Below are positions 21,028 to 37,486 of a stretch of DNA of 64,000 nt, piece after piece. The notes under the pieces were generated by a model. It was not told the origin of the DNA. It saw only the letters and a program-made list of their open reading frames with translations, and made no database searches. Made by a program: the position numbers and the translations under genes. The stretch comes from Stenomitos frigidus ULC18. Its GTDB lineage: Bacteria; Cyanobacteriota; Cyanobacteriia; Leptolyngbyales; Leptolyngbyaceae. The stretch lies in assembly GCF_003003795.1 (NCBI RefSeq), contig NZ_PVWK01000004.1, forward strand, positions 1-64,000, read 5' to 3'. Every line of letters begins with the position of its first letter. Position 1 is the first letter of the stretch.

Positions 21028-22527
21028 TTACGGTAAACAATCCATATAGGTTTCCATATCCCAACTGCTGGTGGTGGCGAGGAAGCGTTCCCATTCGTCG
21101 CGCTTATACCAGTGATAGAGCGGATACATCTCTCCTGGCATCGCTGATTTGATGACCTCATCATCGGCGAGGCGATCGAGGGCTTCCCCTAGTGACATTG
21201 GCAGCTTCTTCACCTGCTTGCCTGCTTCCATTGCCTCATACAGGTTGCGCTGCTCTGGCTCACCCGGATCAAGGTTACGCTTTAAGCCATCATCAAAGGC
21301 TTTGAGCAAGGCACCTGCCATGAGATAGGGGTTCACCATCGAATCCACGGCGCGGTATTCAAAGCGACCGGGTGCCGACACGCGCAAACCACAGGTACGA
21401 TTCTGATAGCCCCAGTCGGAGTAGACGGGTGCCCACAGTCCCGTATCCCACAGGCGACGGTAGGAATTGACGGTCGAACAGCCGATCGCGGTCAAGGCAC
21501 CCAGATGTTCAATCACACCACCAATACAGTTAAGACCAATGGGTCCAGGCTTCCGGCGGGAGGCTTCGGGTACAGGCATGAAGGTGTTTTCACCCCCTTT
21601 GGTGTAGGCAAAGTTTTCGTTCAGTCCCGGCAACTGTTCGAGCCCAAACGTGCTCATCGTTTCTTCACCGCCACGCCACAGCGAAAGGTTATGGTGACAG
21701 CCCGACGCTGAAACGCCCATAAACGGCTTGGTCATGAAGCAGGCAATCAGGTTAAATTCGCGGGCAACCTGGGCACAAATCTGGCGGTAGGTGGTGAGGC
21801 GATCGCACGTCCGCAGCGCATCGTCATACATAAAATTCAGCTCTAGCTGTCCGGGAGCATCTTCATGATCACCCTGGATCATGTCCAATCCCATCGCTTT
21901 GCTGTATTCAATCACGCGCAAGAAAACGGGACGCAATTCTTCAAATTGATCAATCTGGTAGCAGTTGGGTTTGGTGACACCGCCATTGGGCTGCCCATCC
22001 GCCCCTTTCTTCAGCCACATCATTTCGGGTTCGCAACCGTGACGTAGTTGCAAGCCGTGCTCTTCCCGAAACTGAGCGTGAATCCGTTTCAAATTACCCC
22101 GGCAGTCAGACGTGAGAAACGCGCCCGGGTTTTCTTCTTCTTCGCGGTTGCGGAAGCAGGTGCAATAGACGCGCGCCACACGCTTATCCCATGGCAACTG
22201 ACAGAAGGTCTCTGGATCAGGAATGGCAACCAGTTCTGCCGCTTCAGGCCCGTAGCCGATGTAATTGCGGTAGCGATCGAGAAACAAATTTGCCGTTGCA
22301 CCATACACCAGTTGAATGCCGCGATCGGCGATCGTTTCCCAATGGTCAGCGGGTACCCCTTTACCCACAATCCGCCCCGTAATTGAGATGAACTGGTAAT
22401 AGATGTATTGAATGCCCAGCTCGTTAATTTTAGCGCGTACCTGCTTGACTAATTCAGCCCGACCGTCTGCTGCTACGTAGGCTTCCACATCGGTCATGGC
22501 TCCGGCTTTGACGAGAACTCCAGTCAC
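21028..22527 (-). CDS. Glutamine-synthetase-family ligase (gamma-glutamyl-amine type candidate)
   Basis: A 499-residue GS-fold ligase starting at a GTG with GGAGG 7 nt upstream. The catalytic landmarks of the family are all present: GCEPEMMW (metal Glu pair), DHEDAPGQLELNF, SGCHHNLSLW (the GxGxH-like loop), YQNRTCGLRVS (Arg) and FEYRAVDSMVNPYL (Glu/Arg). It is clearly divergent from the main GlnA (no adenylylation loop seen) and from the two GlnT-like proteins at 31-34 kb. Such divergent GS proteins often ligate glutamate to amines other than ammonia. It lies downstream of a signal-less solute-binding protein and a palindromic operator candidate (22599-22610). The true amine substrate is unknown. 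Confidence 0.85.
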   Translation of the reverse strand: MTGVLVKAGAMTDVEAYVAADGRAELVKQVRAKINELGIQYIYYQFISITGRIVGKGVPADHWETIADRGIQLVYGATANLFLDRYRNYIGYGPEAAELVAIPDPETFCQLPWDKRVARVYCTCFRNREEEENPGAFLTSDCRGNLKRIHAQFREEHGLQLRHGCEPEMMWLKKGADGQPNGGVTKPNCYQIDQFEELRPVFLRVIEYSKAMGLDMIQGDHEDAPGQLELNFMYDDALRTCDRLTTYRQICAQVAREFNLIACFMTKPFMGVSASGCHHNLSLWRGGEETMSTFGLEQLPGLNENFAYTKGGENTFMPVPEASRRKPGPIGLNCIGGVIEHLGALTAIGCSTVNSYRRLWDTGLWAPVYSDWGYQNRTCGLRVSAPGRFEYRAVDSMVNPYLMAGALLKAFDDGLKRNLDPGEPEQRNLYEAMEAGKQVKKLPMSLGEALDRLADDEVIKSAMPGEMYPLYHWYKRDEWERFLATTSSWDMETYMDCLP

Positions 22528-22598
22528 TGTTAGTCCTCCAGTTTGATGGCGATTCTAGATGGCGTTGCTAAAAACTCGTTTCGTTAAGTAAATCCAAC

Positions 22599-22610
22599 TT
22601 GTTATAACAG
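22599..22610. promoter_or_regulatory. Operator candidate TTGTTATAACAG (copy 1)
   Basis: A 12-bp near-palindrome, one base from the perfect TTGTTATAACAA, 72 bp upstream of the GS-like start. The same motif recurs at 26776 and, with two changes, at 23644. Such GT-N4-AC palindromes are in the style of GntR-family sites, but no regulator gene is nearby. Confidence 0.35.
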
Positions 22611-22652
22611 CTTTGTATCATTGACTACGAATCGGGCTTTTTCAGGGCACTT

Positions 22653-23375
22653 TCAAGACACTTTCAATGGAAATGGTTTCCAGGGAATCCATTCTGACCA
22701 CAGTTTTGCCACCGTGCCATCCGCAATCAAGTCATCCAGCGTTTGGTTTAAGGCGTTCAAGCAGTCTGGGTGTGCTTTCGGGACACCAATGCTAAAGGGC
22801 ACCTGTGTTAGTACGCTAAACGCGAGGCGAAGGTCAGGATCGTCTTCAGCGGCAACCACCAAGACGAATTCGTCATCAATCAGGGCGTCGATTTGGCCCG
22901 ATCGCAACGCTTCTAGCATCTCTGGCAGTACTTTGTCGCTACCGGGATACGGCACTGTTTCAACACCTGGAAAGGTCGCAGCCAGCACAATATTCGTGCT
23001 GTCGGCGAGACCACCGACGCGCAAGCCAGCCAGGTCTTCGGGGGAATGGATGGGGCGATCGGCTCTCACCAACACGGCTTCATCAAAGAGCCCATAGGGT
23101 TGGGTAAAGTCCACCCATTGCTGCCGTTCTGGCGTAATGGCTTGATTGAACCAGATGACATCGTATTGTCCCGTTTGTAGGCTCGTGTAGAAGTCAGCCA
23201 TCGGCACATTATGCCAAATCGGTTCTAAGTTCAAGCGCTGACAAACGGCTCTCGCCAGCTCTGGTTCGTAGCCAGTGCGCACGTCTTTGACCACGCTCAT
23301 CGGACGCGCATCAAAATCGCTGGCAATAATGTGTAAATAGCCGGGTTGAATGGTGGATAACACGTTGGACTCCAT
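22653..23375 (-). CDS. Solute-binding-protein family 3 domain without signal peptide
   Basis: A 240-residue type II periplasmic-binding fold of the polar amino-acid family. The typical landmarks are visible: FDARPMSVVKDVRTGYEPELARAV split over the start of lobe 1, QYDVIWFNQAITPERQQWVDF, the hinge segment LAGLRVGGLADSTN, and a final IADGTVAKLWSEW. No hydrophobic leader or lipobox precedes the mature fold, and no ABC permease or ATPase is adjacent, so it is probably cytoplasmic or uses another route. It precedes the GS-like gene by 125 bp on the same strand. Possible roles are an intracellular ligand buffer or sensor; as for some orphan SBPs this remains inference. Confidence 0.85.
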   Translation of the reverse strand: MESNVLSTIQPGYLHIIASDFDARPMSVVKDVRTGYEPELARAVCQRLNLEPIWHNVPMADFYTSLQTGQYDVIWFNQAITPERQQWVDFTQPYGLFDEAVLVRADRPIHSPEDLAGLRVGGLADSTNIVLAATFPGVETVPYPGSDKVLPEMLEALRSGQIDALIDDEFVLVVAAEDDPDLRLAFSVLTQVPFSIGVPKAHPDCLNALNQTLDDLIADGTVAKLWSEWIPWKPFPLKVS

Positions 23376-23395
23376 AAAAAATGAGAAAAATTCTT

Positions 23396-23451
23396 TTAGC
23401 TATTAGCTATTAGCTATTAGCGGTCAGCGGTCAGCGGTCAGCTATCAACTC
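23396..23451. repeat. Heptamer array TTAGCTA/TCAGCGG, eight units
   Basis: Eight consecutive 7-bp units: TTAGCTA x3, TTAGCGG, TCAGCGG x2, TCAGCTA and TCAACTC. It is the left partner of an inverted pair with 23516-23557. Confidence 0.9.
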
Positions 23452-23515
23452 TGTATTGATGTTCGATCGCCCACTTAGAGGCAATTCGATCAATCGACCT
23501 GTGATCACGTTTTGC

Positions 23516-23557
23516 TGACCGCTGACTGGTAACTGCTGACCGCTGACTGCTAACCAC
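23516..23557. repeat. Heptamer array TGACCGC/TGACTGC, six units
   Basis: Six 7-bp units whose reverse complement (GCGGTCA) matches the array at 23396-23451. The two arrays face each other across 64 bp. Confidence 0.9.
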
Positions 23558-23643
23558 TCACGCCAATTTCAACATTTCAAGCAAGAACTGCTGAAAAACC
23601 TTGTGGAGCGTAGCTGAAACTACACTTTTTCGGTGCGATGAAC

Positions 23644-23655
23644 TTATTATGACAA
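23644..23655. promoter_or_regulatory. Operator candidate TTATTATGACAA (copy 2, degenerate)
   Basis: It differs from TTGTTATAACAA at two symmetric-arm positions and is 44 bp before the PhyH ATG. Supported mainly by the two better copies in neighbouring promoters. Confidence 0.25.
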
Positions 23656-23698
23656 GTTAATAGTTACTATACATTTCGCGACTTAGCAAGGGTGGACG

Positions 23699-24604
23699 AT
23701 GGGATACCAACCAATTCAACTCACCGATGTACAAAGACAACGGTTTCAGGATGATGGGTTTTTAATTCTGGAAAACTTTTTGCCGATCGACTTAACGCAA
23801 CGCCTGGTGGAACGGATGGAACCGCTGTTTCACGGGAAGTTTGAGACGGGCATTTATCCCGATGAATGGCATTGGCGACCGGGATTGAGCTTGCCTGATG
23901 TCACGCGCGAAATGTGTAACGGCTGGAAAAGTGATTTGACGATCGCCAGTGTGGTGCTGTCGGCTGAAATTGGCCGCCTGTCTGCCACCTTGGCAGGATG
24001 GGATGGTGCGCGGATTGGACAAGATAGCCTTTGGGTGAAGCCGCCCCATGCCAGCGCGATCGCGCTGCATCAAGATGGTGCCTACATCGACTACCTCGAA
24101 CCGGCAGCAATGATGACTTGCTGGATTGCGCTGAATGATGCCAGCGCTGCCGATGGCACCTTGGTCTACGCGAAAGGCTCTCACAAGTGGGATTTAATTG
24201 ACGTTGAAGGGGAGTTTCACGCACCGTCAAAAGATTACCGTTGGGCTATGCTACAAGCGGCTGAGCAAGCAGGCGTAACCGAACCAGAATTGGTGGTGGT
24301 GGAAGTGCCTGCGGGTGGCTGTGCATTCCATCATGGGCGCACCTGGCATGGCTTGTGCAAAACGACTCGCACTGAAGGAGTGTTTAACAGTATGGGATTG
24401 CATACCATTCCATCAAAGGCTCAGTTCCATCCGACCAACCCACAAGGCTATATTTATGGACGCTACAAGCGTGTGGGTGATACCACAATGGATGAAAGTT
24501 TCTTTCCGATTCTTTGGACAAAGGATGGCTATCGCTCACCGCATCTAGCCACCTTCTGCGAGGATGCGTTGCTGTCTCGCAAGGCTACTTATTCCACTGT
24601 TTAG
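23699..24604 (+). CDS. Phytanoyl-CoA dioxygenase (PhyH)-family Fe(II)/2-oxoglutarate oxygenase
   Basis: A 301-residue non-haem iron oxygenase. The facial triad is intact: His124 and Asp126 in ALHQDGAY, and the distal His217 in FHHGRTWHGL, with a conserved Arg a little further on (TTRTEGVFNS) placed to bind 2-oxoglutarate. This family hydroxylates small molecules, including N-methyl compounds and amino acids such as ectoine, with succinate and CO2 as by-products. It stands alone on the plus strand in the amine island, preceded by an operator-like site and followed by a palindromic terminator. A role in oxidising the island's substrate is inferred. Confidence 0.92.
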   Translation: MGYQPIQLTDVQRQRFQDDGFLILENFLPIDLTQRLVERMEPLFHGKFETGIYPDEWHWRPGLSLPDVTREMCNGWKSDLTIASVVLSAEIGRLSATLAGWDGARIGQDSLWVKPPHASAIALHQDGAYIDYLEPAAMMTCWIALNDASAADGTLVYAKGSHKWDLIDVEGEFHAPSKDYRWAMLQAAEQAGVTEPELVVVEVPAGGCAFHHGRTWHGLCKTTRTEGVFNSMGLHTIPSKAQFHPTNPQGYIYGRYKRVGDTTMDESFFPILWTKDGYRSPHLATFCEDALLSRKATYSTV

Positions 24605-24616
24605 CCTTTAAAGCCT

Positions 24617-24644
24617 GTAGGGACGTTATCTGTAACGTCCCTAC
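24617..24644. terminator. Dispersed palindrome GTAGGGACGTTA..TAACGTCCCTAC
   Basis: Perfect 12-bp arms with a 4-nt loop, between the convergent PhyH and small-membrane-protein genes. Near-identical copies occur at 30118 and 44341, and a split copy at 47437, always at 3' ends. It probably works as a two-way terminator as well as being a repeat family. Confidence 0.7.
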
Positions 24645-24657
24645 ACAAAAAGCAGAT

Positions 24658-25077
24658 CTAACGATCGATCACCCGACGAGCCCGTTTTCTGCGCGACGAT
24701 CGCCGCTTACCCTTCAAACCCAACAGAGAACTGCCAAAGCCTGTTAAACCCAGCATTGCCAGTGGCTGCCAGTGCTTTAGCTCCTGCTGCTGGGTGGATT
24801 GGGAACGTTGGCTAGCTTCGGGCTGTCGAGTTGGTTGGGCGTGAAACACCGACCCTAATAGCGATGCCGCACCCGCTACCAGCAGAAGGCTCAACGCGAT
24901 CGGGCTTTTGGACTGCTCATCCCCCTGCTTTAAGTCAAAGGACGCATAGATAAAGTAGACTGTCATACCCAAACAGATGAGCAGCAGCAGTGCGATGATC
25001 GTTGGGTTGTTGGCAAACGTATAAATGGGACCTTTAGCCTCTGAAAAGTCCTTGAAAGTAGCAAAGGGGCTAGTCAT
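24658..25077 (-). CDS. Small membrane protein downstream of amt
   Basis: A 139-residue protein not assigned to a family. Two hydrophobic helices are seen (about 29-47 and 60-78) and a weaker third one (about 105-120), then a strongly basic C-terminal tail (KGKRRSSRRKRARR). GGAG stands 9 nt before the ATG. The gene follows amt by only 12 bp, so it is almost certainly cotranscribed. A small membrane partner of the ammonium transporter is a reasonable guess from context only; it is not a PII (GlnK) protein, the usual amt partner. Confidence 0.75.
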   Translation of the reverse strand: MTSPFATFKDFSEAKGPIYTFANNPTIIALLLLICLGMTVYFIYASFDLKQGDEQSKSPIALSLLLVAGAASLLGSVFHAQPTRQPEASQRSQSTQQQELKHWQPLAMLGLTGFGSSLLGLKGKRRSSRRKRARRVIDR

Positions 25078-25089
25078 GGTTATTTTCTC

Positions 25090-26499
25090 CTATTCCGCTG
25101 CTAATTTTGATGCGCCGACTGCCGTTGGTGCTGTACCGCCGTTTGTTGTGACGTGGGTGACAAACGCTGGCGTCGCGTATTCCGGGTAGCCCTCAACGCC
25201 CAGATCGGATAGATCTAAGCCAGCAATCTCTTCTTCCCGCGAAACACGCAACAGGTTGAACTTCTTCAGCAACCAGCTTGTGACATAGCCTGGAATGAAA
25301 CCCAGGAGTACTGTGCAGATCAGCGTTCCCACAATTTGCCCGATCGGGTTGATCGATGGAATGCCGTCACCTTGGGGATATCCCATCGCTGCAAAGCCAA
25401 CGATCGCTGAACCCAGGAAGCCACAAAACCCATGTACACCAACGGCACCAACCGCATCATCAATGCCAGCTTTTTCAACCGCCATAATGACTTTGGGCAT
25501 TAAGAAGGCACCAATAAACGCCAGGATGATCACCAATGCCGGATGATACAGATCCATGCCACCACCAACAGTAATAATACCCGCCAAGCCACCGGAAATC
25601 GTAAAGAACGGGTCACCCTTGGAAGACAGGTAAGCCCCCACCAAGCCAGCTGCAAGCGCCAGCGTGGTGCTGACCCCGACCGACGCTAGAGTCATTGGTG
25701 TGGCATAAATGGTGGTTTCTTTGGCGGCACCGGGCAAGAAGATCAGGCAGGCTGCCAGAAAGGCATAGAAACCCACAAAAATGAGCATGAGCCCCACCAT
25801 AGTTAACGGTAGGTTGTGAGGCAGAATGGGTCTGGGTTTGCCATTCTGATCATATTTGCCAATCCGAGGTCCCAGATTGAGCAACACGCCCAGAGTGAAA
25901 AAGCCAGAAACACCGTGCACCACCCCTGCACAGCCAAAATCATGGTAGCCCAGTTTGGTGAACATCCAGCCAAACGCATTCCACCCCCAAGCAGCCGCAA
26001 CCACCCAGGTAAAAGAGCCGAGGACGATCGACATCACCAGATACGCACCAATCTTCACGCGCTCAATCAACGCTCCTGAAAGAATCGATGCAGTCGTCAT
26101 GGCAAAAAGCGCAAAGGCAAAGAAAAAGACCCCGGTGATGTGGTCGCTCGTATTCGGCCCCAGTGCAGGTGACCAGGGATAAGACGCATCGACATAGACC
26201 ATCGCGGTTTTAATCATCTCGCTTTCAGCTGGATTCGTCCATGGCCCCAGAATGCCACCCGTCAGTGGAAAGAAGGGGAACGCATTGTAAACCCACCAGC
26301 CAAAAAAGAAGAACGCTAGACCGACACTTGCCAGGGTTAAAAGGTTTTTAACCATTGTGGCAAGCACATTCTTGGTGCGAGAGGCTCCGCCTTCGTAGGC
26401 AAGAAACCCCGCATGGATCAGCAACATAAACACGGACGCCCAATAGTAAAAGGACTCCGAGACAAACGTGCCAAGGAATTGTTGTGCTTCAGGTGACAT
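25090..26499 (-). CDS. amt: Ammonium transporter
   Basis: A 469-residue Amt/Mep/Rh channel with about 11 membrane helices. The pore twin histidines are present (His195 in GVVHGVSG and His356 in GVHGFCGFLG), as is the DFGCAGVVHG signature. There is no clear cleavable signal peptide, and the soluble C-terminus after about 425 keeps the regulatory EEEIAGLDLSDLG helix seen in trimer-gating Amts. It imports ammonium or recaptures ammonia leaking from metabolism. It is divergent from the ACAD-fold gene across 600 bp that hold a perfect TTGTTATAACAA site. Its placement among amine-metabolism genes suggests recapture of ammonium released by the pathway. Confidence 0.95.
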   Translation of the reverse strand: MSPEAQQFLGTFVSESFYYWASVFMLLIHAGFLAYEGGASRTKNVLATMVKNLLTLASVGLAFFFFGWWVYNAFPFFPLTGGILGPWTNPAESEMIKTAMVYVDASYPWSPALGPNTSDHITGVFFFAFALFAMTTASILSGALIERVKIGAYLVMSIVLGSFTWVVAAAWGWNAFGWMFTKLGYHDFGCAGVVHGVSGFFTLGVLLNLGPRIGKYDQNGKPRPILPHNLPLTMVGLMLIFVGFYAFLAACLIFLPGAAKETTIYATPMTLASVGVSTTLALAAGLVGAYLSSKGDPFFTISGGLAGIITVGGGMDLYHPALVIILAFIGAFLMPKVIMAVEKAGIDDAVGAVGVHGFCGFLGSAIVGFAAMGYPQGDGIPSINPIGQIVGTLICTVLLGFIPGYVTSWLLKKFNLLRVSREEEIAGLDLSDLGVEGYPEYATPAFVTHVTTNGGTAPTAVGASKLAAE

Positions 26500-28581: not shown

Positions 28582-30084
28582 ATGACGATCAATGAAGTAG
28601 TGACTCCGATCGCCGAAGTGAGTCAGCCTGGGCTACGACGCACGATCGGATGGAAAGATGCCTTTTGGATTTCGAGTGGTGCGTCGACGATCGTCCTACT
28701 GTCGATCGGGTCGATGGCAGCCACACTGGGAACACCCTCCTGGCTGGTGTGGACAATTTCATCCATCATCGGCTTTGTCCAGCTTTTTATCTATGCTGAA
28801 ATCGCTGGGCTGTTTCCCAACAAGTCGGGCGGCGCATCGGTGTATGGTTCAGTCGCGTGGATTCGCTACAACAAGCTGTTTGCACCCATTAACGTCTGGG
28901 CATACTGGTTAGCCTGGTCGCCTGTGCTAGCGCTCTCCTCCGCGCTGGCTGGCAGCTACATCGTGACCGCCTTTTTTGCGGATACCGCCTTCGGCAGTTT
29001 TTCCATGACGCTGTTGGATTTATCCGCGATCTTGCCGGGAATTAAACTATCGCTCAGTACACCCATTTTGATCGGCATTGTCATTTTGCTTGCCAGTTTC
29101 TACATTCAGCATTCGGGCGTGATGCGAACTGCCAGAACGCAATTTGTGCTGGCACTGTTGTCGTTGATTCCCATCGCGCTGCTGGGCATTGTGCCACTGC
29201 TGTTAGGCAAGGTGAATTTTGCGAACTTCTCACCGTTTTTGCTTCAGGGTACAACGAGTTGGTTCAGCAAAGAGTCGTTTACGCTGATCATGGGTGGGAT
29301 GTTTATTGCTGCCTGGACGACCTATGCGGCTGAGACCGCTGTTTGCTACACCAGCGAATTCAAAGATCCATCCAAAGACAACGTGCGGGCGATCGGGTCG
29401 TCTGGTATTCTCGCTTTCCTTTGCTACACGATTTTGCCCTTTTCCTTCCTGGGCGTACTGGGTATGGCGAATCTCACCGATCCAGCGTTTGTGGCTGGTG
29501 ATCCACAGGCGGCGATCGTAAAATTAGCTGAAATTACTTTTGGAAGCGGATCAGGTAAACTCATCACGCTGATGCTGATTTTTGCCCTGGTCTTATCGAT
29601 TAGTACAGCTATGGCAGGTGGCTCTCGCACGTTGTATCAAGGCTCGGTAGATGGATTGCTGCCACGTTATCTAAGTAGTGTGAATAGCCACGGTGTACCG
29701 ACAAAAGCCATGTGGACAGATCTGGCATTCAACATTTTCTTGTTGACTCTGGGTAGTCCGATTTTTGTGCTGGCAGCCTCCAGCGTTGCTTACGTGCTTT
29801 GTATCGCGATGGATATGAATGCGGGTTGGATGCATCGACTCCAGCGTCCTAATGTCTATCGCCCCTACCGCGCGCCGGATTGGTTGATCTTTGTGGGTGG
29901 CCCTGTACTTTCCTTATTGAACCTGGCATTCATCTTCTTTGGTGCCAATGTGTTTGCACCGAATGCGCTGTGGTATGGTTTGGCCGCGATCGCGATCGTG
30001 CTTCCCATCTTTTACTACCGTCACTATGTGGTGGATAAAGGTATTTGGCCCGAAGCAGCTCGACGGGATCTGGGCATTGAGTAG
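28582..30084 (+). CDS. APC-superfamily amino acid/amine permease
   Basis: A 500-residue transporter with about 12 hydrophobic helices. The N-terminal helix begins after the WKDAFWISSGAST stretch, where the discontinuous first helix of APC carriers with its substrate-binding backbone lies. The segments GLFPNKSGGASVYGSV and AWTTYAAETAVCYTSEF are typical of the amino acid/polyamine/organocation superfamily. It sits directly behind the flavoprotein gene and before the creatininase-like gene, so it likely imports the pathway substrate. Which amino acid or amine is carried cannot be read from the sequence. Confidence 0.9.
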   Translation: MTINEVVTPIAEVSQPGLRRTIGWKDAFWISSGASTIVLLSIGSMAATLGTPSWLVWTISSIIGFVQLFIYAEIAGLFPNKSGGASVYGSVAWIRYNKLFAPINVWAYWLAWSPVLALSSALAGSYIVTAFFADTAFGSFSMTLLDLSAILPGIKLSLSTPILIGIVILLASFYIQHSGVMRTARTQFVLALLSLIPIALLGIVPLLLGKVNFANFSPFLLQGTTSWFSKESFTLIMGGMFIAAWTTYAAETAVCYTSEFKDPSKDNVRAIGSSGILAFLCYTILPFSFLGVLGMANLTDPAFVAGDPQAAIVKLAEITFGSGSGKLITLMLIFALVLSISTAMAGGSRTLYQGSVDGLLPRYLSSVNSHGVPTKAMWTDLAFNIFLLTLGSPIFVLAASSVAYVLCIAMDMNAGWMHRLQRPNVYRPYRAPDWLIFVGGPVLSLLNLAFIFFGANVFAPNALWYGLAAIAIVLPIFYYRHYVVDKGIWPEAARRDLGIE

Positions 30085-30940: not shown

Positions 30941-30996
<56 letters not shown>

Positions 30997-31169: not shown

Positions 31170-31218
31170 CAGTTCTGATTCAAAACCAAGCGTTAGAAAT
31201 TAGTAGCCAATCCTGTGC

Positions 31219-31246
31219 TGAACGCTGAACGCTGATAGCTGACCGC
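31219..31246. repeat. Heptamer array TGAACGC/TGACCGC, four units
   Basis: TGAACGC x2, TGATAGC and TGACCGC: reverse-complement orientation to the array at 30941. It ends 30 bp before the first GlnT-like gene. Confidence 0.85.
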
Positions 31247-31276
31247 TGTTTAAATAAATGATGGGATACGAGTGAT

Positions 31277-32635
31277 ATGGATGAAGTATTAACTGACTTT
31301 CAGGCATTGAAGACAACGCTCAAAGAGAAAGGGGTGAAATACGCGATCGCCAGCTTTGTGGATTTGCATGGGATGTGCAAAGCCAAGATGGTGCCGCTGA
31401 CGCACTTTGAGCAGATGATGCAAGGGTCAGAACTGTTCACTGGAGCGGCGTTGAATGGCGTACCGCAGGAAATCAATGACGAAGAAGTGGCAACGATGCC
31501 CGATCCTGCGAGTGCGACTGTTTTACCCTGGAACTCAGAAATTGCCTGGTTTGCAAGCGATCTGTATGTGGGTGGCAAACCGTTTGAAGCGTGCTGTCGT
31601 AGTATCTTGAAAAACGCTCTGAAGCAAGCAGCAGATATGGGGTTTCAGTTCAATCTGGGCATTGAAACCGAGTTTTTTATCTTTAAAGACACCGCGGATG
31701 GTGGGTTTAGACCTGTGAGCGATCGCGACACGATCGCCAAAGCGGCATACGCGGTGCCAACGCTGCTGGACAATTACAACATTCTGGATACGATCGTCAG
31801 TGCGATGAACCAGTTGGGTTGGGGCGTATACTCCTTCGACCACGAAGATGCACAAGGGCAATTTGAAACGGATTTTGGGTATTGTGATGCGCTGACGATG
31901 AGCGATCGGCTCACTTTTTTCCGCTTGATGGTGAAAGAGCTTGCCCGACAGCACGGTTATTTTGCCAGCTTCATGCCCAAACCCTACTCCAATCAAACGG
32001 GCAGCGGCGCACACTACAACATGTCGCTGTCAGACATCAAGACGGGTGAAAATCTCTTTCTGAGCAACGACGATCCGCGCGGCTGTAAGCTATCCACACT
32101 GGGCTATCAATTTATTGCCGGTATTCTCAAACATGCGCCTGCGATCTGTGCGGTGATTGCGCCGACGGTCAACAGCTACAAACGGCTCGTGGCGCAGGGC
32201 AGTATGTCGGGCTTTACGTGGGCACCCGTTTACATTTGCTACGGCAACAATAATCGTACCAACATGCTGCGGATTCCGCTAGCGGGTGGACGTGTGGAAT
32301 GCCGTGCTGCGGATATTTCGACCAATCTTTACCTCGGTGCTGCCATGATTCTCACGGCTGGGTTGGAGGGTATCCGCGAGGGACTCGATCCCGGTGAGCC
32401 GCATACCGAGAATATGTACAAATACACAGCTCAAGAACGCATGGCAAAAGGTATTCAAAGCTTGCCGCGTACCTTGGGTGAGGCGATCGAGTCCTTTGCT
32501 GCCGATCCATTGGGTGAAACGGTGATGGGGGCACTCATGTATCAGACCTATATCGACTTCAAAACTCAGGAATGGCTGGAGTATCATAACCATATTTCCG
32601 ATTGGGAACGGCAGCGCTACCTGAAATTCTTTTAA
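31277..32635 (+). CDS. glnT: GlnT-type glutamine-synthetase-family ligase, paralogue 1
   Basis: A 452-residue type III (GlnT) GS-family ligase, the class that also contains gamma-glutamylmethylamide synthetases. Active-site motifs are complete: NLGIETEFF, DHEDAQGQFETDF, GSGAHYNMS, NNRTNMLRIP and GRVECRAADISTN. It probably ligates glutamate to ammonia or an amine with ATP. It is a close tandem copy of the gene at 32707. The two differ little except in residues about 132-180 (after FIFKD), where paralogue 1 reads AAYAVPTLLDNYNIL. Retention of two near-copies points to different substrates or regulation. The start has an ATG with a GA-rich but weak ribosome binding site. Confidence 0.9.
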   Translation: MDEVLTDFQALKTTLKEKGVKYAIASFVDLHGMCKAKMVPLTHFEQMMQGSELFTGAALNGVPQEINDEEVATMPDPASATVLPWNSEIAWFASDLYVGGKPFEACCRSILKNALKQAADMGFQFNLGIETEFFIFKDTADGGFRPVSDRDTIAKAAYAVPTLLDNYNILDTIVSAMNQLGWGVYSFDHEDAQGQFETDFGYCDALTMSDRLTFFRLMVKELARQHGYFASFMPKPYSNQTGSGAHYNMSLSDIKTGENLFLSNDDPRGCKLSTLGYQFIAGILKHAPAICAVIAPTVNSYKRLVAQGSMSGFTWAPVYICYGNNNRTNMLRIPLAGGRVECRAADISTNLYLGAAMILTAGLEGIREGLDPGEPHTENMYKYTAQERMAKGIQSLPRTLGEAIESFAADPLGETVMGALMYQTYIDFKTQEWLEYHNHISDWERQRYLKFF

Positions 32636-32706
32636 AGATTCAAACTTCAAGGCTGCTCATCCTCTATGCTTGCTTCTAGCCGTATCTTTAGCCATTGGGA
32701 GACTCT

Positions 32707-34068
32707 ATGGGTGGACTGTTCTCGTCTGATTTACAAGAACTGAAGCTAGCGCTCAAAGAGAAAGGGGTGAAATACGCGATCGCCAGCTTTGTAGACATTC
32801 ATGGCATGTGCAAAGCCAAAATGGTGCCGCTGACGCACTTTGAGCAGATGATGCAAGGGTCAGAACTGTTCACTGGAGCGGCGTTGGATGGCGTACCGCA
32901 GGAAATCAACGATGAAGAAGTGGCCACGATGCCCGATCCTGCTAGTGCCACTGTTCTGCCCTGGAACTCAGAAATGGCTTGGTTTGCCAGCGATCTGTAT
33001 GTAGGTGGTAAGCCCTTTGAAGCATGCTGTCGCAGCATTTTGAAAAATGCCCTCAAGCAGGCAGCAGATATGGGCTTTCAGTTCAACCTGGGGATTGAAA
33101 CAGAGTTTTTCATCCTTAAAGAAGGTGAGGACGGCAAAGCTGCCCCAGTGAGCGATCGCGATATCCTGGCTAAACCCTGCTACGACCTGCAAGGGCTACT
33201 CGACAACTACGCCTGGGTGGATGAAATTGTGCAGGCGATGAACCATCTAGGTTGGGATGTTTATTCCTTTGATCATGAAGATGGGAACGGTCAGTTTGAA
33301 ACCGATTTCACCTACTGCGATGCGCTGACGATGGCCGATCGTCTCACCTTCTTTCGGTTGATGGTCAAAGAAATCGCCCGTAAACATGGCTACTTTGCCA
33401 GCTTTATGCCCAAGCCCTTTGCTGATCGCACAGGCAGTGGCGCTCATTACAATATGTCGCTGGCAGACCTCAAGACGGGTCAGAATGTCTTTGTCAATGA
33501 GTCTGATCCGCGTGGCTGCAAGCTGTCCACACTGGGTTATCAGTTCATTGCAGGCATTCTCAAACATGCGCCAGCCATTTGTGCGGTGATTGCACCCACA
33601 GTCAACAGCTACAAGCGGCTGGTCGCGCAGGGCAGTATGTCGGGCTTTACGTGGGCACCCGTTTACATCTGTTACGGCAACAATAATCGCACCAACATGC
33701 TACGGATTCCCCTGGCAGGTGGACGTGTGGAATGCCGTGCTGCAGACATTTCTAGCAATCTCTATCTGGGTGCGGCGATGATTCTCACCGCTGGACTAGA
33801 AGGTATCCGAGAGGGACTTGATCCAGGTGAACCTCACGCTGAGAACATGTACAAGTACTCGAAAGCAGAGCTGAAAACAATGGGCATTCAAACCTTGCCC
33901 CGCACGTTGGGAGACGCGATCGAGTCTTTTGCTGCCGATCCATTGGGCGAGCAGGTGATGGGTTCATTGATGTATCAGACGTATATTGATTTCAAGTCGC
34001 AAGAATGGCAGGAGTATCACACGCATGTTTCGGACTGGGAAATCCAACGCTATCTGAAGTTTTTCTAA
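32707..34068 (+). CDS. glnT: GlnT-type glutamine-synthetase-family ligase, paralogue 2
   Basis: A 453-residue tandem copy of the preceding gene, 71 bp downstream. The start is taken at the ATG at 32707 with GGGAG about 6 nt before it; a TTG 12 bp upstream is also open. All catalytic motifs of the family are present (NLGIETEFF, DHEDGNGQFETDF, GSGAHYNMS, NNRTNMLRIP, GRVECRAADISSN). Divergence from paralogue 1 is concentrated in residues about 133-185 (EGEDGKAAPVSDRD, CYDLQGLLDNYAWV), near the start of the region that shapes the glutamate/amine side, while long flanks are identical. It is followed by two nested palindromes and the MOSC gene. Confidence 0.9.
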   Translation: MGGLFSSDLQELKLALKEKGVKYAIASFVDIHGMCKAKMVPLTHFEQMMQGSELFTGAALDGVPQEINDEEVATMPDPASATVLPWNSEMAWFASDLYVGGKPFEACCRSILKNALKQAADMGFQFNLGIETEFFILKEGEDGKAAPVSDRDILAKPCYDLQGLLDNYAWVDEIVQAMNHLGWDVYSFDHEDGNGQFETDFTYCDALTMADRLTFFRLMVKEIARKHGYFASFMPKPFADRTGSGAHYNMSLADLKTGQNVFVNESDPRGCKLSTLGYQFIAGILKHAPAICAVIAPTVNSYKRLVAQGSMSGFTWAPVYICYGNNNRTNMLRIPLAGGRVECRAADISSNLYLGAAMILTAGLEGIREGLDPGEPHAENMYKYSKAELKTMGIQTLPRTLGDAIESFAADPLGEQVMGSLMYQTYIDFKSQEWQEYHTHVSDWEIQRYLKFF

Positions 34069-34085
34069 AACCAAGAAACGCAAGC

Positions 34086-34104
34086 TAAGAAACCCGGTTT
34101 CTTA
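34086..34104. repeat. Palindrome TAAGAAACC-C-GGTTTCTTA
   Basis: A perfect 19-bp palindrome, enclosed by CAAGCT (34081) and AGCTTG (34111) as an outer stem. A partial copy (GAAACCCGGCTTCT) follows near 34132, and two more perfect copies lie at 37569-37601. It is found only in spacers here and could end transcription of the ligase pair. Confidence 0.75.
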
Positions 34105-34165
34105 ACGCAAAGCTTGTAACCAACCTGACCATCAGAAACCCGGCTTCTATTGAAAAGGAGTTTTT

Positions 34166-34969
34166 ATGCCAAGTGCATCTGCTACCGTTGGGACGATCGC
34201 CACTCTATGGCGCTATCCAGTGAAATCCATGATGGGTGAGGAGTTGAATGCCACGCAGATATTGGAGCGAGGCTTGCTGGGCGATCGCGCCTATGCCCTC
34301 ATTGATGTCGCCACAGGGAAAACCATCAGCGCCAAATCACCCCGTCGATGGGGCAAACTGTTTGACTGTCGGGCAGCAATGCAGACGCTATCGCAGGTAA
34401 AAATGACGCTGCCGGATGGGACAATCGTGTTTAGCGATGCGGCAACTGTAGAGCAAACGCTGTCGAATGCCTTTGGGCGTGCGGTGAAGCTGGAAACAAC
34501 CGCACCAACCGCTCCCAGCATTGAGATGTATACCCCCGACATCGATGAACTCCCGGATCACGACCAGATGTCGGATGCTGACATTCGCCCCGGCACTTTT
34601 TTCGATGCAGCCACGATCCATTTGCTGACGACCGCGACGATGAATCAATTGCAGTCGATCGCGCCCACATCACGCTTTGAAACCCGTCGTTTTCGTCCCA
34701 ATTTGGTGATTCAGCCTGCCAATGGTGCAACAGGTTTTGTGGAGAATGAATGGGTCGGCAGGACTCTGGCGATCGGTGATGAAGTCAAGCTCACTATCGA
34801 TATGCCCTGTCCCCGTTGTGTGATGACCACCATGCCGCAAGGGGAACTGCCCAACGATTTGGAAATTTTACGAACGGCTGTGAAACACAATGAGGGCAAT
34901 ATTGGAGTATATGCCAGCGTGCTTCACAGTGGCACTGTGAGACGAGGTGATGTGGTTCGTTTAGAGTAG
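34166..34969 (+). CDS. MOSC domain protein (mARC/YcbX-like)
   Basis: A 267-residue protein with an N-terminal MOSC_N beta-barrel (about 8-115, starting ATLWRYPVKSMMGEEL) and a MOSC domain (about 125-265). The Moco-binding cysteine region of mARC/YcbX proteins is recognisable as MPCPRCVMTT. mARC-type enzymes reduce N-hydroxylated substrates with an electron donor, often a fused or separate ferredoxin; no ferredoxin domain is present here. AAGGAG 7 nt before the ATG is the strongest ribosome binding site in the island. Its place beside oxidative and amine-ligating enzymes suggests handling of an N-oxygenated intermediate, which is inference. Confidence 0.9.
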   Translation: MPSASATVGTIATLWRYPVKSMMGEELNATQILERGLLGDRAYALIDVATGKTISAKSPRRWGKLFDCRAAMQTLSQVKMTLPDGTIVFSDAATVEQTLSNAFGRAVKLETTAPTAPSIEMYTPDIDELPDHDQMSDADIRPGTFFDAATIHLLTTATMNQLQSIAPTSRFETRRFRPNLVIQPANGATGFVENEWVGRTLAIGDEVKLTIDMPCPRCVMTTMPQGELPNDLEILRTAVKHNEGNIGVYASVLHSGTVRRGDVVRLE

Positions 34970-35035
34970 TCAGCGTTTAGCTTTGCGTGGATTGTTTGCG
35001 TTTTGAGTTGCTGCTGACCGCTGATCGCTGACTCC
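34970..35035. repeat. Inverted pair of short heptamer arrays
   Basis: TCAGCGT and TTAGCTT (34970-34983) stand opposite TGACCGC, TGATCGC and TGACTCC (35015-35035) in reverse orientation, in the 97-bp spacer between the MOSC and DUF1989-GcvT genes. Confidence 0.7.
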
Positions 35036-35066
35036 AATCAGTTCCATCAAGTAAACAGGCTGCACT

Positions 35067-36920
35067 ATGCGTCTTGATACTAAACCACCTGAAATATACT
35101 TAGGTCTGCCACAACCGTTAGGAACGATCGTGGCAGAGTATCGCATTGAACCATCAACCGCGATCGCCTATTCCGTGCGGGCAGGTCAATATATTCAAAT
35201 TATCGATGTGGAGGGTTCGCAATGTTCGGACTTTCTGTCGTTTGCTGGGGCTGGGTATCGTGAGGAATTGGATGGTACGGTCACGCGGACGCTCAATGGG
35301 TTAGCAGTGCCGCAAGCAGGGCTATTGGGCAAATACTTCTCACAAATGATGCAGCCGCTATTTGAAGTCATTCAAGACACCTGCGGACGACACGATAGTT
35401 TTCTCCTTGCCTGTACCGATCGCTATTACGAAGATGCAGGCTATCCAGGGCATCCAAGCTGTAGCGAGAATTTCAATCAGGTGTTGGAGCCACATGGCAT
35501 GGCACGGCGATCGGGCTGGGCAGCGATCAATTTCTTTTTCAATACTGAGGTGGATCATACCGGGACGATCGCAGCGGGTGAATCCTGGTCGCGTCCGGGT
35601 GACTATGTGCTTTTGCAGGCAAAGCGGGATTTGCTCTGCGCCAGCTCTGCGTGTCCAGATGATATTGATCCGGCAAATGGGTGGCAGCCCACTTCGATCC
35701 ATCTACGCATTTATGATGCCAGTGAAACCTTTGCGAAGGCGATCGGGCGACGGGCGATCGCGACTGCACCTATCCGTTTGACGCAGCCGAGTGGCTTTAC
35801 CAGTCGCATTCAAGCGCTAACGGATGACCTTACCGAATATAACGGCTTTTGGGTGCCCAATCGTTTTGCCAATTACGGTATTCAGGCGGAATATTGGGCA
35901 CTCCGAGAGAGCGCCGTTGTGATGGATTTATCGGCGCTACGAAAATTTGAAATTACGGGGACTGATGCCTTTTCACTTTTGCAACAGGCGTTTTCGCGGG
36001 ATGTCAGCAAGCTGGCGATCGGGCAGTCGGCGTATGGCTGCTTGCTGAACCAGCATGGCGGCATTGTGGATGATGGCATTGTGTTTCGGCTGACGGACAC
36101 TGCGTATCGTTACGTTGGCAACTGCGATAGTGACGAGCAGTGGTTGCAACGTGTGGCGCAACAGGCTGGCTTTCAAGTGACCATTCAGCCCTCCAGTCAT
36201 CAGTGCCATAACCTTGCCCTTCAAGGCCCCCTTGCTCGTGAGCTTCTGCGTCCTTTGGTCACGTTTGATCCCTTTTATCATGTGGAAACGCTGGATGAGC
36301 TTGCCTACTTCCGTTTTGCCACAGGCACTGTGGCTGGCATCCCTGCTCTCGTTTCGCGCACGGGCTACACCGGTGAACTGGGTTATGAACTGTTTGTCCA
36401 ACCCGATCGCGGTGCAGCACTGTGGGATGCGCTCATGCAGGCAGGTGCGCCGATGGGATTAACGCCAATGGGTATGCTGGCGCTCGATCGCGCCCGCATT
36501 GAAGCGGGATTGCTCGCAGCCGGACGCGAATTTGATGACCTCATCTCGCCCTATCAGGCAGGTATCGGCTGGGCGGTGGCGTTGAAGAAGCCTAACTTCA
36601 TTGGCAAAGCCGCGTTGGAGCAGATCAAACCCCATCCGCCACGCCTTGCCGTTGGGCTGATTCTGGAGGGGAATGAGGTCGCGGCCTATGGACAGTGTCT
36701 TCATCCTCCTGGCGATCGGGGACGGGTTGGGATGATTACCAGCGCGACGTTTTCGCCCTTGTTGAATCAAAGCATTGCAATGGCGCAGGTGGTACCGGAA
36801 TACGCGACTCCGGGCACGGAGCTAGAGGTTGGCTTGATGGATGGCATGAAGCGCCGTGTCAGGGCGATCGTCGGTACACTAGCCGCTTATGACCCTACCA
36901 AGAGCCGAGTGAAAGTATGA
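35067..36920 (+). CDS. DUF1989 - GcvT (folate-dependent aminomethyltransferase-fold) fusion
   Basis: A 617-residue two-domain protein. Residues about 15-215 form a DUF1989 (urea-carboxylase-associated) domain with the conserved HPSCSENFNQVL and CPDDIDPANGW stretches; the Cys residues there may bind metal. Residues about 235-605 are a GcvT/sarcosine-oxidase-alpha C-terminal-type folate domain, including RTGYTGELGYELFV and the distal GCLLNQHGGIVDDG. GcvT-fold proteins move one-carbon units from amines or sulfonium groups to tetrahydrofolate (glycine cleavage T protein, dimethylglycine and sarcosine enzymes, DMSP demethylase). No FAD domain is attached, so oxidation must come from another protein. 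The stop overlaps the next start by ATGA. Confidence 0.9.
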   Translation: MRLDTKPPEIYLGLPQPLGTIVAEYRIEPSTAIAYSVRAGQYIQIIDVEGSQCSDFLSFAGAGYREELDGTVTRTLNGLAVPQAGLLGKYFSQMMQPLFEVIQDTCGRHDSFLLACTDRYYEDAGYPGHPSCSENFNQVLEPHGMARRSGWAAINFFFNTEVDHTGTIAAGESWSRPGDYVLLQAKRDLLCASSACPDDIDPANGWQPTSIHLRIYDASETFAKAIGRRAIATAPIRLTQPSGFTSRIQALTDDLTEYNGFWVPNRFANYGIQAEYWALRESAVVMDLSALRKFEITGTDAFSLLQQAFSRDVSKLAIGQSAYGCLLNQHGGIVDDGIVFRLTDTAYRYVGNCDSDEQWLQRVAQQAGFQVTIQPSSHQCHNLALQGPLARELLRPLVTFDPFYHVETLDELAYFRFATGTVAGIPALVSRTGYTGELGYELFVQPDRGAALWDALMQAGAPMGLTPMGMLALDRARIEAGLLAAGREFDDLISPYQAGIGWAVALKKPNFIGKAALEQIKPHPPRLAVGLILEGNEVAAYGQCLHPPGDRGRVGMITSATFSPLLNQSIAMAQVVPEYATPGTELEVGLMDGMKRRVRAIVGTLAAYDPTKSRVKV

Positions 36921-37486
36921 TGCAACTGCCCGCACCCATCAGCGCAACAGCGTTCATCAGCCTCGCCGACTCTCAACTATGGGATTTTGCTGGCGTTGAT
37001 GGCTTGCCACTGGCAAAGGCATTGGTTGGTGCTCGTGCCGATCGCCTCGCGCCGTTTCAATCGCTGGAAACCACGATCGACGGTCAGCCTTGCTCGCTGC
37101 TGCGTCTCTGTGAAGGCAACTTTCGTGTGCGCGTCTGGGGAGAGGAGGAGGCGTTTGCAGCAACGCTTCAGTCGCTTCAATTCGGGCTGCGCGTTTGGGT
37201 AAAGCAGTGTGAGTGGATGGAAGCGATCGCGCTACCGGAATCTGTTGGCCTGATGCATCTATCCAATGTTGCCATCCCCAAACCACCCCATCGGTTAGAA
37301 GGTATGGTGGGCGATCGGGCGTTGCCTGCGCGTATCGATGGTTTTTCGGTGTTGCTGTGGCGACATGTGGTTGGTGGACAACCCGCGTTTGAGTTGCAGA
37401 CAGCGACGAAACATTTGGCAACCATCCAGGCAACTTTCACTTCTTGCTGTAGCGATTCAAACAGTTTATTTAGCGCTTCTAAATAA
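36917..37486 (+). CDS. Sarcosine oxidase gamma-subunit (SoxG)-like protein
   Basis: A 189-residue protein whose fold resembles SoxG, the small subunit of heterotetrameric sarcosine oxidase, itself related to the GcvT fold. It overlaps the DUF1989-GcvT gene by 4 bp (ATGA), so the two are translationally coupled and probably form a complex. In the known enzyme SoxG accompanies SoxA (whose C-terminus is GcvT-like), SoxB and SoxD. Here only the GcvT-like and gamma-like parts exist in the window, with neither the FAD- nor NAD-binding subunits. The assignment rests on size, context and general similarity (for example GDRALPARIDGFSVLLWRHV), so confidence is moderate. Confidence 0.7.
   Translation: MMQLPAPISATAFISLADSQLWDFAGVDGLPLAKALVGARADRLAPFQSLETTIDGQPCSLLRLCEGNFRVRVWGEEEAFAATLQSLQFGLRVWVKQCEWMEAIALPESVGLMHLSNVAIPKPPHRLEGMVGDRALPARIDGFSVLLWRHVVGGQPAFELQTATKHLATIQATFTSCCSDSNSLFSASK

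What the first reader, a model, noticed from the sequence alone, without database searches (positions are those of the whole stretch)
21028..37486. Candidate undescribed amine / N-methyl-compound assimilation island
Seen: in about 16 kb there are three GS-family ligases with intact active sites, an APC permease, Amt, an Fe/2OG oxygenase, an ACAD-fold flavoprotein, a creatininase-fold hydrolase, a MOSC protein, a DUF1989-GcvT fusion and a SoxG-like subunit. Known: GlnT/GMAS-type ligases glutamylate amines, GcvT folds pass C1 units to folate, and SoxG belongs to sarcosine-type oxidases. Inference: import of a methylated or alkylated amine, gamma-glutamylation, oxidative cleavage by PhyH or the flavoprotein, C1 transfer to THF, amide hydrolysis, and ammonium recapture. 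The combination does not match the N-methylglutamate, polyamine Puu or creatinine pathways I know.
Basis: partly seen in the sequence, partly recalled or inferred. Interest (0 to 1): 0.78.

Follow-up and report, generated by a model that had tools for sequence, protein, structure and literature searches.

The report
Cyanobacterial trimethylamine-oxide nitrogen-scavenging gene island
This cyanobacterium carries a gene island that most likely strips methyl groups from trimethylamine N-oxide, so its nitrogen can be used; it is a patchily spread cyanobacterial variant of a pathway known from proteobacteria, and it matters because an unexpected flavoprotein seems to have replaced the usual first enzyme.

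Summary
The genes reported are real and at the stated coordinates. The DUF1989-GcvT protein is a short homologue of TMAO demethylase (Tdm; PDB 9q59, 607 bits); it keeps the proposed metal-site residues but lacks the N-terminal third domain. The APC permease is nearest to the TMAO permease model, below its cut-off. The paired GS-like enzymes resemble methylamine ligases. The same genome holds an N-methylglutamate (NMG) type cluster on another contig, and in one relative such a cluster sits directly beside the Tdm genes. So this looks like the upstream half of TMA/TMAO catabolism, not an unknown pathway.

What is new: (1) a cyanobacterial Tdm clade (45 of 388 genomes sampled) that is short and followed by a SoxG-fold gene (41 of 45). 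(2) An ACAD-fold flavoprotein without the acyl-CoA dehydrogenase catalytic Glu, in 33 of 45 Tdm+ genomes. Of the 12 without it, five carry a cut-off-passing trimethylamine monooxygenase near Tdm; none of the 33 does in the stretches fetched. This suggests displacement of Tmm, but only two changes on the tree support it. (3) No DmmA-type protein found in this genome; the Fe/2OG oxygenase is the candidate for the missing step. No activity was tested.

The parts
21028..22527 (-). GS3: probable glutamate-amine ligase of the glutamine synthetase fold
   Evidence: PF00120; GmaS catalytic D/E/R and flap Trp kept, ammonia Asp50' and flap Glu absent; TIGR03105 302 bits, below cut-off 469.6; on 10 of 45 Tdm stretches
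22653..23375 (-). SBP: family-3 solute-binding-type protein; no clear signal peptide, perhaps a cytoplasmic sensor or enzyme
   Evidence: PF00497; N-terminus not strongly hydrophobic; on 15 of 45 Tdm stretches
23699..24604 (+). PhyH: Fe(II)/2-oxoglutarate oxygenase; candidate dimethylamine demethylase
   Evidence: PF05721; HxD motif at residue 124; on 14 of 45 Tdm stretches, with Tmm as well as with ACAD
24658..25077 (-). Conserved 139-aa protein beside Amt, one hydrophobic stretch by eye
   Evidence: No Pfam or NCBIfam hit; on 25 of 45 Tdm stretches
25090..26499 (-). Amt family transporter (ammonium or methylammonium)
   Evidence: PF00909; on 27 of 45 Tdm stretches; also near proteobacterial tdm in 2 of 6 loci, L011 and L015
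27100..28533 (+). ACAD-fold flavoprotein; candidate amine N-oxygenase in place of Tmm
   Evidence: PF02771/00441/02770; catalytic Glu motif YEGT is MGPT; 33 of 37 genomes with it have Tdm
28582..30084 (+). APC permease, nearest to the TMAO permease model
   Evidence: NF053774 600 bits, cut-off 690; 48% identical APC gene near Tdm in Roseovarius L012
30172..30936 (+). Creatininase-fold amidohydrolase, accessory
   Evidence: PF02633; TIGR04448 142.6 bits, cut-off 235; 1 of 45 Tdm stretches
31277..32635 (+). GS1: GmaS-type glutamate-methylamine ligase
   Evidence: TIGR03105 560 bits over cut-off; GS1 type (60% identity or more) on 4 of 45 Tdm stretches
32695..34068 (+). GS2: tandem paralogue of GS1 (85% identical)
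   Evidence: TIGR03105 594 bits over cut-off; best PDB hit 9qur glutamate-methylamine ligase, 409 bits
34166..34969 (+). MOSC_N+MOSC protein, mARC-like; likely Moco N-oxide or N-hydroxyl reductase
   Evidence: PF03476+PF03473; only PDB hits are three mARC1 constructs, C-x-R-C motif aligned; on 7 of 45 stretches
35067..36920 (+). Short TMAO-demethylase homologue (DUF1989+GcvT)
   Evidence: NF053776 830 bits, cut-off 1100; PDB 9q59 607 bits; D55, C116, H129, C132, C196, D198 in 45 of 45 cyanobacterial homologues, D199 in 44 of 45
36917..37486 (+). SoxG-fold partner protein, overlaps Tdm by 4 bases
   Evidence: AlphaFold and fold search; hit on 41 of 45 Tdm stretches

Best explanation
The island is the upstream, N-demethylating half of a cyanobacterial pathway for taking nitrogen (and C1 units) from trimethylamine N-oxide and/or trimethylamine. 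Proposed steps: (a) TMAO enters through the APC permease, or TMA is N-oxygenated inside the cell, in most cyanobacteria with this locus by the ACAD-fold flavoprotein and in a minority by true Tmm. (b) The short Tdm, with its SoxG-fold partner, splits TMAO into dimethylamine and formaldehyde; its GcvT domain may hand the C1 unit to folate. (c) Dimethylamine is demethylated to methylamine by an enzyme other than DmmABC, most plausibly the Fe/2OG oxygenase. (d) GmaS-type ligases make gamma-glutamylmethylamide. (e) The NMG-type genes on contig C105 (MgsABC, MgdABCD, PurU) release the last C1 unit and return glutamate and nitrogen. (f) The mARC-like MOSC protein reduces stray N-oxygenated products, and Amt handles ammonium or methylammonium. 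Shown here: homology, residue conservation, neighbourhood and co-occurrence. Inferred: every reaction. Step (b) rests on the strongest evidence; (a) for ACAD and (c) for PhyH are guesses by elimination.
For: Tdm homology to the structurally solved enzyme over 603 residues, with the Zn cysteines, the His and the Asp residues discussed in the literature kept. Permease nearest to the TMAO permease model. GmaS residues in all three ligases. An NMG-type cluster in the same genome; its Mgs-type proteins are 45-65% identical to three genes near tdm in a Rhodobacteraceae locus, L015. L070 has ACAD-Tdm-SoxGl-GntR directly beside MgsC, MgsB, MgsA, GmaS, SoxG and SoxA types. Five cyanobacterial Tdm loci carry a cut-off-passing trimethylamine monooxygenase on the stretch fetched. 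Of 388 genomes, 33 have Tdm and ACAD, 12 Tdm only, 4 ACAD only, 339 neither.
Against: Tdm (830 of 1100 bits) and the permease (600 of 690) miss their curated cut-offs. Tdm lacks the N-terminal domain said to be ubiquitous. The two folate-contact places that the same paper finds changed in Tdm are changed here too (Phe and Met by my hand count on the alignment), so C1 transfer to folate is doubtful. Asp198 of the window (mutated in 9q5a) is not fixed in the six proteobacterial homologues: D in 3, C in 2, A in 1 in the alignment. Neither Tmm nor a DmmA-type protein was found in this genome, so two steps of the known pathway have no known enzyme. The NMG-type cluster is on another contig, and its Sox-type subunits are below their curated cut-offs. 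No activity or expression data.
Confidence: 0.72

Rival explanations
1. The DUF1989-GcvT protein has drifted from TMAO to another N-methylated or N-oxygenated substrate (for example an N-methylguanidine, creatinine-derived or N-hydroxy amine). The ACAD, MOSC and creatininase genes belong to that substrate, and the TMAO signature is ancestry only.
For: Scores under both TMAO cut-offs. Its DUF1989 part also hits the urea-amidolyase-associated models UAAP1/UAAP2, far below their cut-offs. Loss of the N-terminal domain and gain of a SoxG-fold partner. Creatininase gene present.
Against: Proposed metal-site residues fixed in 45 of 45 apart from one D to E. Five relatives couple the same short Tdm to trimethylamine monooxygenase. 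TMAO-permease-like gene in this island. Creatininase occurs on only 1 of 45 Tdm stretches.
Confidence: 0.18
2. The ACAD-fold protein does not N-oxygenate TMA; it is the dimethylamine oxidase/demethylase, or it oxidises gamma-glutamyl amides, and TMAO comes only from outside.
For: No DmmA-type protein found in the window genome, so a dimethylamine enzyme is needed. The window has its own TMAO-permease-like gene.
Against: Three ACAD+ cyanobacteria have a PF11927 protein as well, although those are only 26-29% identical to a proteobacterial PF11927 match and lie on other contigs than Tdm. Tmm+ cyanobacteria without ACAD would still lack the step: the one searched genome-wide (G050) has no PF11927. 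No genome seen has both ACAD and Tmm (17 searched whole; Tdm stretches of 45).
Confidence: 0.27
3. The island is two unrelated neighbours: a general amine-nitrogen block (GS3, SBP, PhyH, Amt) and a separate Tdm block.
For: In genus g92 (family f13) ACAD-PhyH-SBP lie over 100 kb from Tdm-SoxGl-Amt in G297, G348 and G234.
Against: They still occur in the same genomes and are contiguous in others (window, L007, L013, L240, L244, L257).
Confidence: 0.1

Closest known systems
Tmm-Tdm-DmmDABC-GmaS-MgsABC-MgdABCD trimethylamine catabolism of Ruegeria pomeroyi and other roseobacters (PMC5520151 and PMC13390433, passages seen)
   Same: Tdm homologue, GmaS-type ligases, MgsABC- and MgdABCD-type genes (other contig), Amt gene, and in some relatives Tmm and a GntR regulator
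   Different: Cyanobacterial host; Tmm apparently replaced by an ACAD-fold protein; no DmmA-type protein found in this genome; short Tdm with a SoxG-fold partner; added PhyH, MOSC, solute-binding-type protein and a third GS-like ligase
TMAO demethylase Tdm of Methylocella silvestris / Paracoccus (NF053776; PDB 9q59; that 9q59 is from Paracoccus is recalled)
   Same: DUF1989 domain plus GcvT domain, the proposed metal-site residues
   Different: About 165 N-terminal residues (third, DUF1989-like domain) missing; separate SoxG-fold protein follows
Gamma-glutamylmethylamide synthetase GmaS (PMC7948447, passages seen; PDB 7cql) and glutamate-methylamine ligase (PDB 9qur)
   Same: Catalytic D177, E186, R312; flap Trp; no ammonia Asp
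   Different: Two tandem copies 85% identical with Thr at the Ala48' place; a third ligase (GS3, Val there) is divergent and under the family cut-off
Group D (ACAD-fold) flavin monooxygenases such as isobutylamine N1-monooxygenase (PMC6165268, passages seen)
   Same: ACAD fold, no canonical catalytic Glu, linked to amine/N-oxide genes
   Different: Nearest solved relatives by sequence and fold are acyl-CoA dehydrogenases; no flavin reductase among the island's genes; activity unknown

Membership tests
TMAO demethylase (Tdm, NF053776) | DUF1989 followed by GcvT in one chain | tested here: met
   PF09347 26-190, PF01571 247-503, PF08669 529-609
TMAO demethylase (Tdm, NF053776) | Zn cysteines C263, C279, C343 and D198, H276, D346 (Methylocella numbering) | tested here: met
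   Window C116, C132, C196, D55, H129, D199; fixed in 45 of 45 cyanobacterial homologues except D199 (44 of 45); mapped by hand count on the alignment
TMAO demethylase (Tdm, NF053776) | N-terminal third (DUF1989-like) domain, reported as ubiquitous | tested here: not met
   Match starts at model residue 152-156; no room upstream in the window (4 open codons); largest open frame among 45 is 732 aa
TMAO demethylase (Tdm, NF053776) | Curated score cut-off 1100 bits | tested here: not met
   830 bits
TMAO demethylase (Tdm, NF053776) | Formaldehyde and dimethylamine released from TMAO | not testable with these tools
   Needs an assay
GmaS-type glutamate-methylamine ligase | Catalytic D177, E186, R312 | tested here: met
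   GS1, GS2, GS3
GmaS-type glutamate-methylamine ligase | No ammonia Asp50' and no Glu in the flap (Trp instead) | tested here: met
   T/T/V and W/W/W in GS1/GS2/GS3
GmaS-type glutamate-methylamine ligase | TIGR03105 cut-off | tested here: inconclusive
   Met by GS1 (560) and GS2 (594), not met by GS3 (302; cut-off 469.6), so GS3 is not filed there; the model itself is named a glutamate-ammonia ligase
Tmm-Tdm-Dmm-NMG trimethylamine pathway | Tmm in the genome | tested here: not met
   Only an E 7e-4 match in G000
Tmm-Tdm-Dmm-NMG trimethylamine pathway | DmmA (PF11927, family recalled) in the genome | tested here: not met
   0 matches in G000, control rang in 1 of 14; assembly is in 167 contigs
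Tmm-Tdm-Dmm-NMG trimethylamine pathway | GmaS + MgsABC + MgdABCD | tested here: met
   L102 (contig C105): SoxB/D/A/G types (478.6, 66.5, 849.6 and 21 bits, all under their subfamily cut-offs), GmaS type (644, over cut-off), three glutamate-synthase-like proteins, PurU (over cut-off); met by homology and gene order, not by cut-off
TMAO permease (NF053774) | Curated cut-off 690 bits | tested here: not met
   600 bits; next model 61 bits
SoxG (sarcosine oxidase gamma) | PF04268 / TIGR01375 sequence models | tested here: not met
   No match for 36917-37486 (without a ringing control)
SoxG (sarcosine oxidase gamma) | Fold | tested here: met
   1vrq_C TM 0.66/0.64 at Foldseek rank 15; GcvT T-protein 1wos ranks first, Z 16.7, rmsd 2.2, 168 aligned
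Acyl-CoA dehydrogenase | Catalytic Glu in the YEGT motif (position recalled) | tested here: not met
   MGPT in the window and in 6 of 6 aligned
Creatininase (TIGR04448) | Curated cut-off 235 bits | tested here: not met
   142.6 bits

The most novel reading that the evidence does not exclude
The ACAD-fold flavoprotein is a new kind of trimethylamine N-oxygenase that displaced the FMO-type Tmm in most cyanobacteria with this locus. It works beside a minimal Tdm whose missing N-terminal domain is made up by a separate SoxG-fold subunit, and a PhyH-type 2-oxoglutarate oxygenase replaces the DmmABC dimethylamine monooxygenase. TMAO catabolism would then have been rebuilt in cyanobacteria with three unrelated parts.
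Probability: 0.27. Interest if true: 0.78.

Novelty: new variant of a known kind. Interest (0 to 1): 0.62.

Why it matters
In the papers whose titles, abstract starts or passages I saw, TMA/TMAO catabolism is described in heterotrophic bacteria, mostly proteobacteria; none of what I saw describes it in cyanobacteria. Papers that hold both words but were not opened (for example PMC9999580, PMC12661815) may say more. If cyanobacteria use TMAO and methylamines, phototrophs compete with heterotrophs for methylated-amine nitrogen, and about 12% of the cyanobacterial genomes sampled here (45 of 388) would be candidates. Mechanistically, the locus points to replacements for Tmm and for DmmABC; the second matters because genomes with the other methylamine genes but no dmm are known (SAR11, PMC5520151, figure legend seen). 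It also supplies a naturally shortened Tdm for asking what the N-terminal domain does.

Tried and rejected
Creatinine or creatine route: rejected as the main function. The creatininase-fold gene misses its family cut-off and occurs on 1 of 45 Tdm stretches. It may be accessory.

Polyamine (Puu) route: rejected. GGputSyn scores are 219-266 bits against a cut-off of 650.

Ammonia-dependent glutamine synthetases: rejected for all three ligases (Asp50' and flap Glu absent).

Canonical acyl-CoA dehydrogenase: rejected on the catalytic Glu. Fold comparison did not discriminate: the ACAD model (pLDDT 75.3) is closest to acyl-CoA dehydrogenases (4kto_A Z 46.8, rmsd 2.1, 374 aligned). One chain titled flavin-containing monooxygenase (5z8t_A) is at Foldseek rank 19; it is not among the 50 VIA rows.

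SoxG by sequence: no match (one search had no ringing control, so that absence says little).

A phylogenetically independent test of ACAD/Tmm exclusion: inconclusive. The tree needs only 2 changes between the two states and gives 2-3 independent pairs. The Fisher values 2e-33 and 6.5e-4 treat genomes as independent, which they are not.

GC content as a sign of transfer: no signal (island 0.514, rest of the window 0.503).

Genome overlap between samples: most of the cyanobacteria appear again in the 388 (for example G042=G202, G050=G240, by contig number and length), so the two sets are not independent.

In one search the longest frames that I took from L109-L111 were wrong pieces; I disregarded those rows.

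Full report
OBSERVATION. ACAD, APC, creatininase, GS1, GS2, MOSC, Tdm and SoxGl run on the + strand with gaps of 48, 87, 340, 59, 97 and 97 bases and a 4-base overlap, consistent with one or two operons. GS3, a solute-binding-type gene, a 139-aa gene and Amt are on the other strand, with PhyH between them on the + strand.

WHAT THE CENTRAL PROTEIN IS. The best NCBIfam model for 35067-36920 is TMAO demethylase (830 bits; curated cut-off 1100), and the best PDB hit is TMAO demethylase 9q59 (607 bits, residues 13-615). Using the residues discussed in PMC12560246 (passages seen) and a hand count on the alignment, the three Zn cysteines, the His and the Asp residues all have counterparts in the window. 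They are fixed in 45 of 45 cyanobacterial homologues, except the last Asp (44 of 45). In the region aligned, structure 9q5a differs from 9q59 at two aspartates (both D to A); the window has Asp at both (D55, D198). Against over-reading, the second of these is D in only 3 of the 6 proteobacterial rows of the alignment (C in 2, A in 1). The paper states that a third, N-terminal DUF1989-like domain is ubiquitous in Tdm homologues; here it is absent. The window has four open codons upstream of the first match residue, and the largest open frame among the 45 is 732 aa. The six proteobacterial homologues have frames of 781-911 aa. So it is a short Tdm variant and not, by the curated cut-off, a plain member.

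THE PARTNER. The next gene overlaps Tdm by 4 bases; a homologue is hit on 41 of 45 Tdm stretches, 1.0-2.3 kb downstream of Tdm centre to centre. Two of the four misses are cut at the contig end (G258, G368), and two (G169, G228) are non-hits at E 1e-8. Sequence models do not recognise it. An AlphaFold model (pLDDT 86.9) has the GcvT/SoxG fold: 1wos Z 16.7, rmsd 2.2, 168 aligned; SoxG chain 1vrq_C TM 0.66/0.64.

THE LIGASES. GS1 and GS2 are 85% identical and exceed the TIGR03105 cut-off (560 and 594 against 469.6). GS2's best PDB hit is a glutamate-methylamine ligase (9qur, 409 bits), then GmaS (7cql, 321), then glutamine synthetases (271 and less). By the residues in PMC7948447 (passages seen), all three ligases keep D177, E186 and R312 and the flap Trp, and lack Asp50' (Thr, Thr, Val) and the flap Glu. 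GS3 is below the family cut-off (302) and its amine is unknown.

THE OTHER HALF OF THE PATHWAY. The same genome carries, on contig C105, a PuuR-like regulator, PurU, SoxB-, SoxD-, SoxA- and SoxG-type subunits, a GmaS type (644 bits) and three glutamate-synthase-like proteins. The four Sox-type proteins are below the cut-offs of the sarcosine-oxidase models (SoxG at E 2e-4 only), as N-methylglutamate dehydrogenase subunits might be. This is the gene set of the N-methylglutamate pathway (pathway named in PMC5520151, passages seen). The three Mgs-type proteins are 45, 53 and 65% identical to genes near tdm in a Rhodobacteraceae locus (L015). In L070, ACAD-Tdm-SoxGl-GntR lies directly beside (opposite strand) MgsC, MgsB, MgsA, GmaS, SoxG and a SoxA cut by the contig end, 53-86% identical to those on C105. 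That is the most direct link between this island and methylamine.

CONSERVATION. Of 78 loci found in named genomes, ten are cyanobacterial Tdm at 67-80% identity, six are proteobacterial Tdm at 43-50%, and the remaining 62 match at lower identity (36% or less, over the GcvT part). In the window's own GTDB family (42 genomes; the order search returned the same 42) only the window genome has Tdm at E 1e-100 or ACAD at E 1e-60; the six congeners have neither. In 388 genomes sampled from the class at the same thresholds, 45 have Tdm and 37 have ACAD; 33 have both. Of the four with ACAD only, two have Tdm cut at a contig end, one has broken Tdm pieces, and one has none on its 8.5-kb contig. On the stretches fetched (of very different lengths) the 45 Tdm genes are accompanied by Amt 27, the 139-aa gene 25, ACAD 19, the solute-binding-type gene 15, PhyH 14, GS3 10, a GntR/UTRA regulator 9, MOSC 7, Tmm 5, GS1 type 4, APC 1 and creatininase 1, the window included. 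The APC and creatininase genes therefore look like local additions.

ACAD AND TMM. In 17 Tdm+ genomes searched whole, a close ACAD homologue (78-90% identical, in pieces in G045) is in nine, all cyanobacterial; the next best match anywhere is 30% or less. A close Tmm homologue (54% or more) is in five, four proteobacterial and one cyanobacterial (G050); the other matches are weak. None has both; three have neither (G048, G054, G057). In the class sample, 12 Tdm+ genomes lack ACAD; five of these carry Tmm on the Tdm stretch, and all five proteins exceed the curated trimethylamine monooxygenase cut-off (768-795 against 675; the G240 protein was scored as its copy in L016). The other seven have no Tmm on the stretch fetched (4.4-19.9 kb); none of the 33 ACAD+ genomes has Tmm on its Tdm stretch (Fisher 6.5e-4). 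Against over-reading: on a Tdm tree the two states need only two changes, and independent pairs are too few for a test. The ACAD protein lacks the catalytic Glu of acyl-CoA dehydrogenases (YEGT is MGPT), as one expects of an enzyme with other chemistry. ACAD-fold (group D) flavin monooxygenases that N-hydroxylate amines exist (PMC6165268, passages seen). No flavin reductase is among the island's genes; I did not search the genome for one.

DIMETHYLAMINE STEP. PF11927 (HODM/DmmA type; that DmmA belongs to this family is recalled) has no match in the window genome. It is present in six of 17 Tdm+ genomes, three of them cyanobacterial, where the proteins are only 26-29% identical to a proteobacterial PF11927 match and lie on other contigs than Tdm. 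PhyH accompanies Tdm both with ACAD and with Tmm, so it is the best candidate by elimination; its nearest solved relatives are SnoK and other PhyH-type oxygenases at E 3.5e-10 or weaker, which does not settle the substrate.

MOSC. The only PDB relatives are mARC1 constructs (E 3e-8). The mARC family reduces N-oxygenated compounds; mARC1 reduces TMAO, but poorly (PMC10637980, passages seen). A role in clearing stray N-oxides or N-hydroxyl products is inference.

VERDICT. A cyanobacterial variant of the known TMA/TMAO route, patchily distributed, with two or three probable enzyme replacements. That cyanobacteria do this is not described in what I saw of the open papers found (listings, and passages of some); subscription papers are not in the library. 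GmaS homologues in cyanobacteria have been shown in an alignment before (PMC7948447, Fig. 10 legend).

Noticed in passing
window 37694-40492 +: LRR-Roc-COR-TIR protein (932 aa) directly downstream of the island; the TIR part matches ThsB-like and other defence TIR models (best E 4e-17). Not part of the island.
   Followed up: partly
L105 (own genome contig C114) 77-6563: A DUF1989 protein, a GS with both PF00120 and PF03951, an SLH-domain protein and a GntR/UTRA regulator 64% identical to the one beside Tdm in L004.
   Followed up: partly
L016 15647-21751: Near Tdm and Tmm: GS3, a DUF6885 protein, a second divergent GS-like ligase and two more PhyH genes, perhaps a related amine module.
   Followed up: no
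L157, L158, L159: PF11927 (HODM-like) proteins in three cyanobacteria, on other contigs than Tdm and only 26-29% identical to a proteobacterial PF11927 match.
   Followed up: no
L007 6365-7939 and L258 12713-13356: ACAD split over three frames in L007, and Tdm in broken pieces in L258: decay or assembly errors.
   Followed up: no
window 22653-23375 -: Family-3 solute-binding-type protein without a clear signal peptide, conserved near GS3 and PhyH; possibly a cytoplasmic sensor or enzyme.
   Followed up: no
window 56001-64000: GC content drops to about 0.42 from about 0.51.
   Followed up: no
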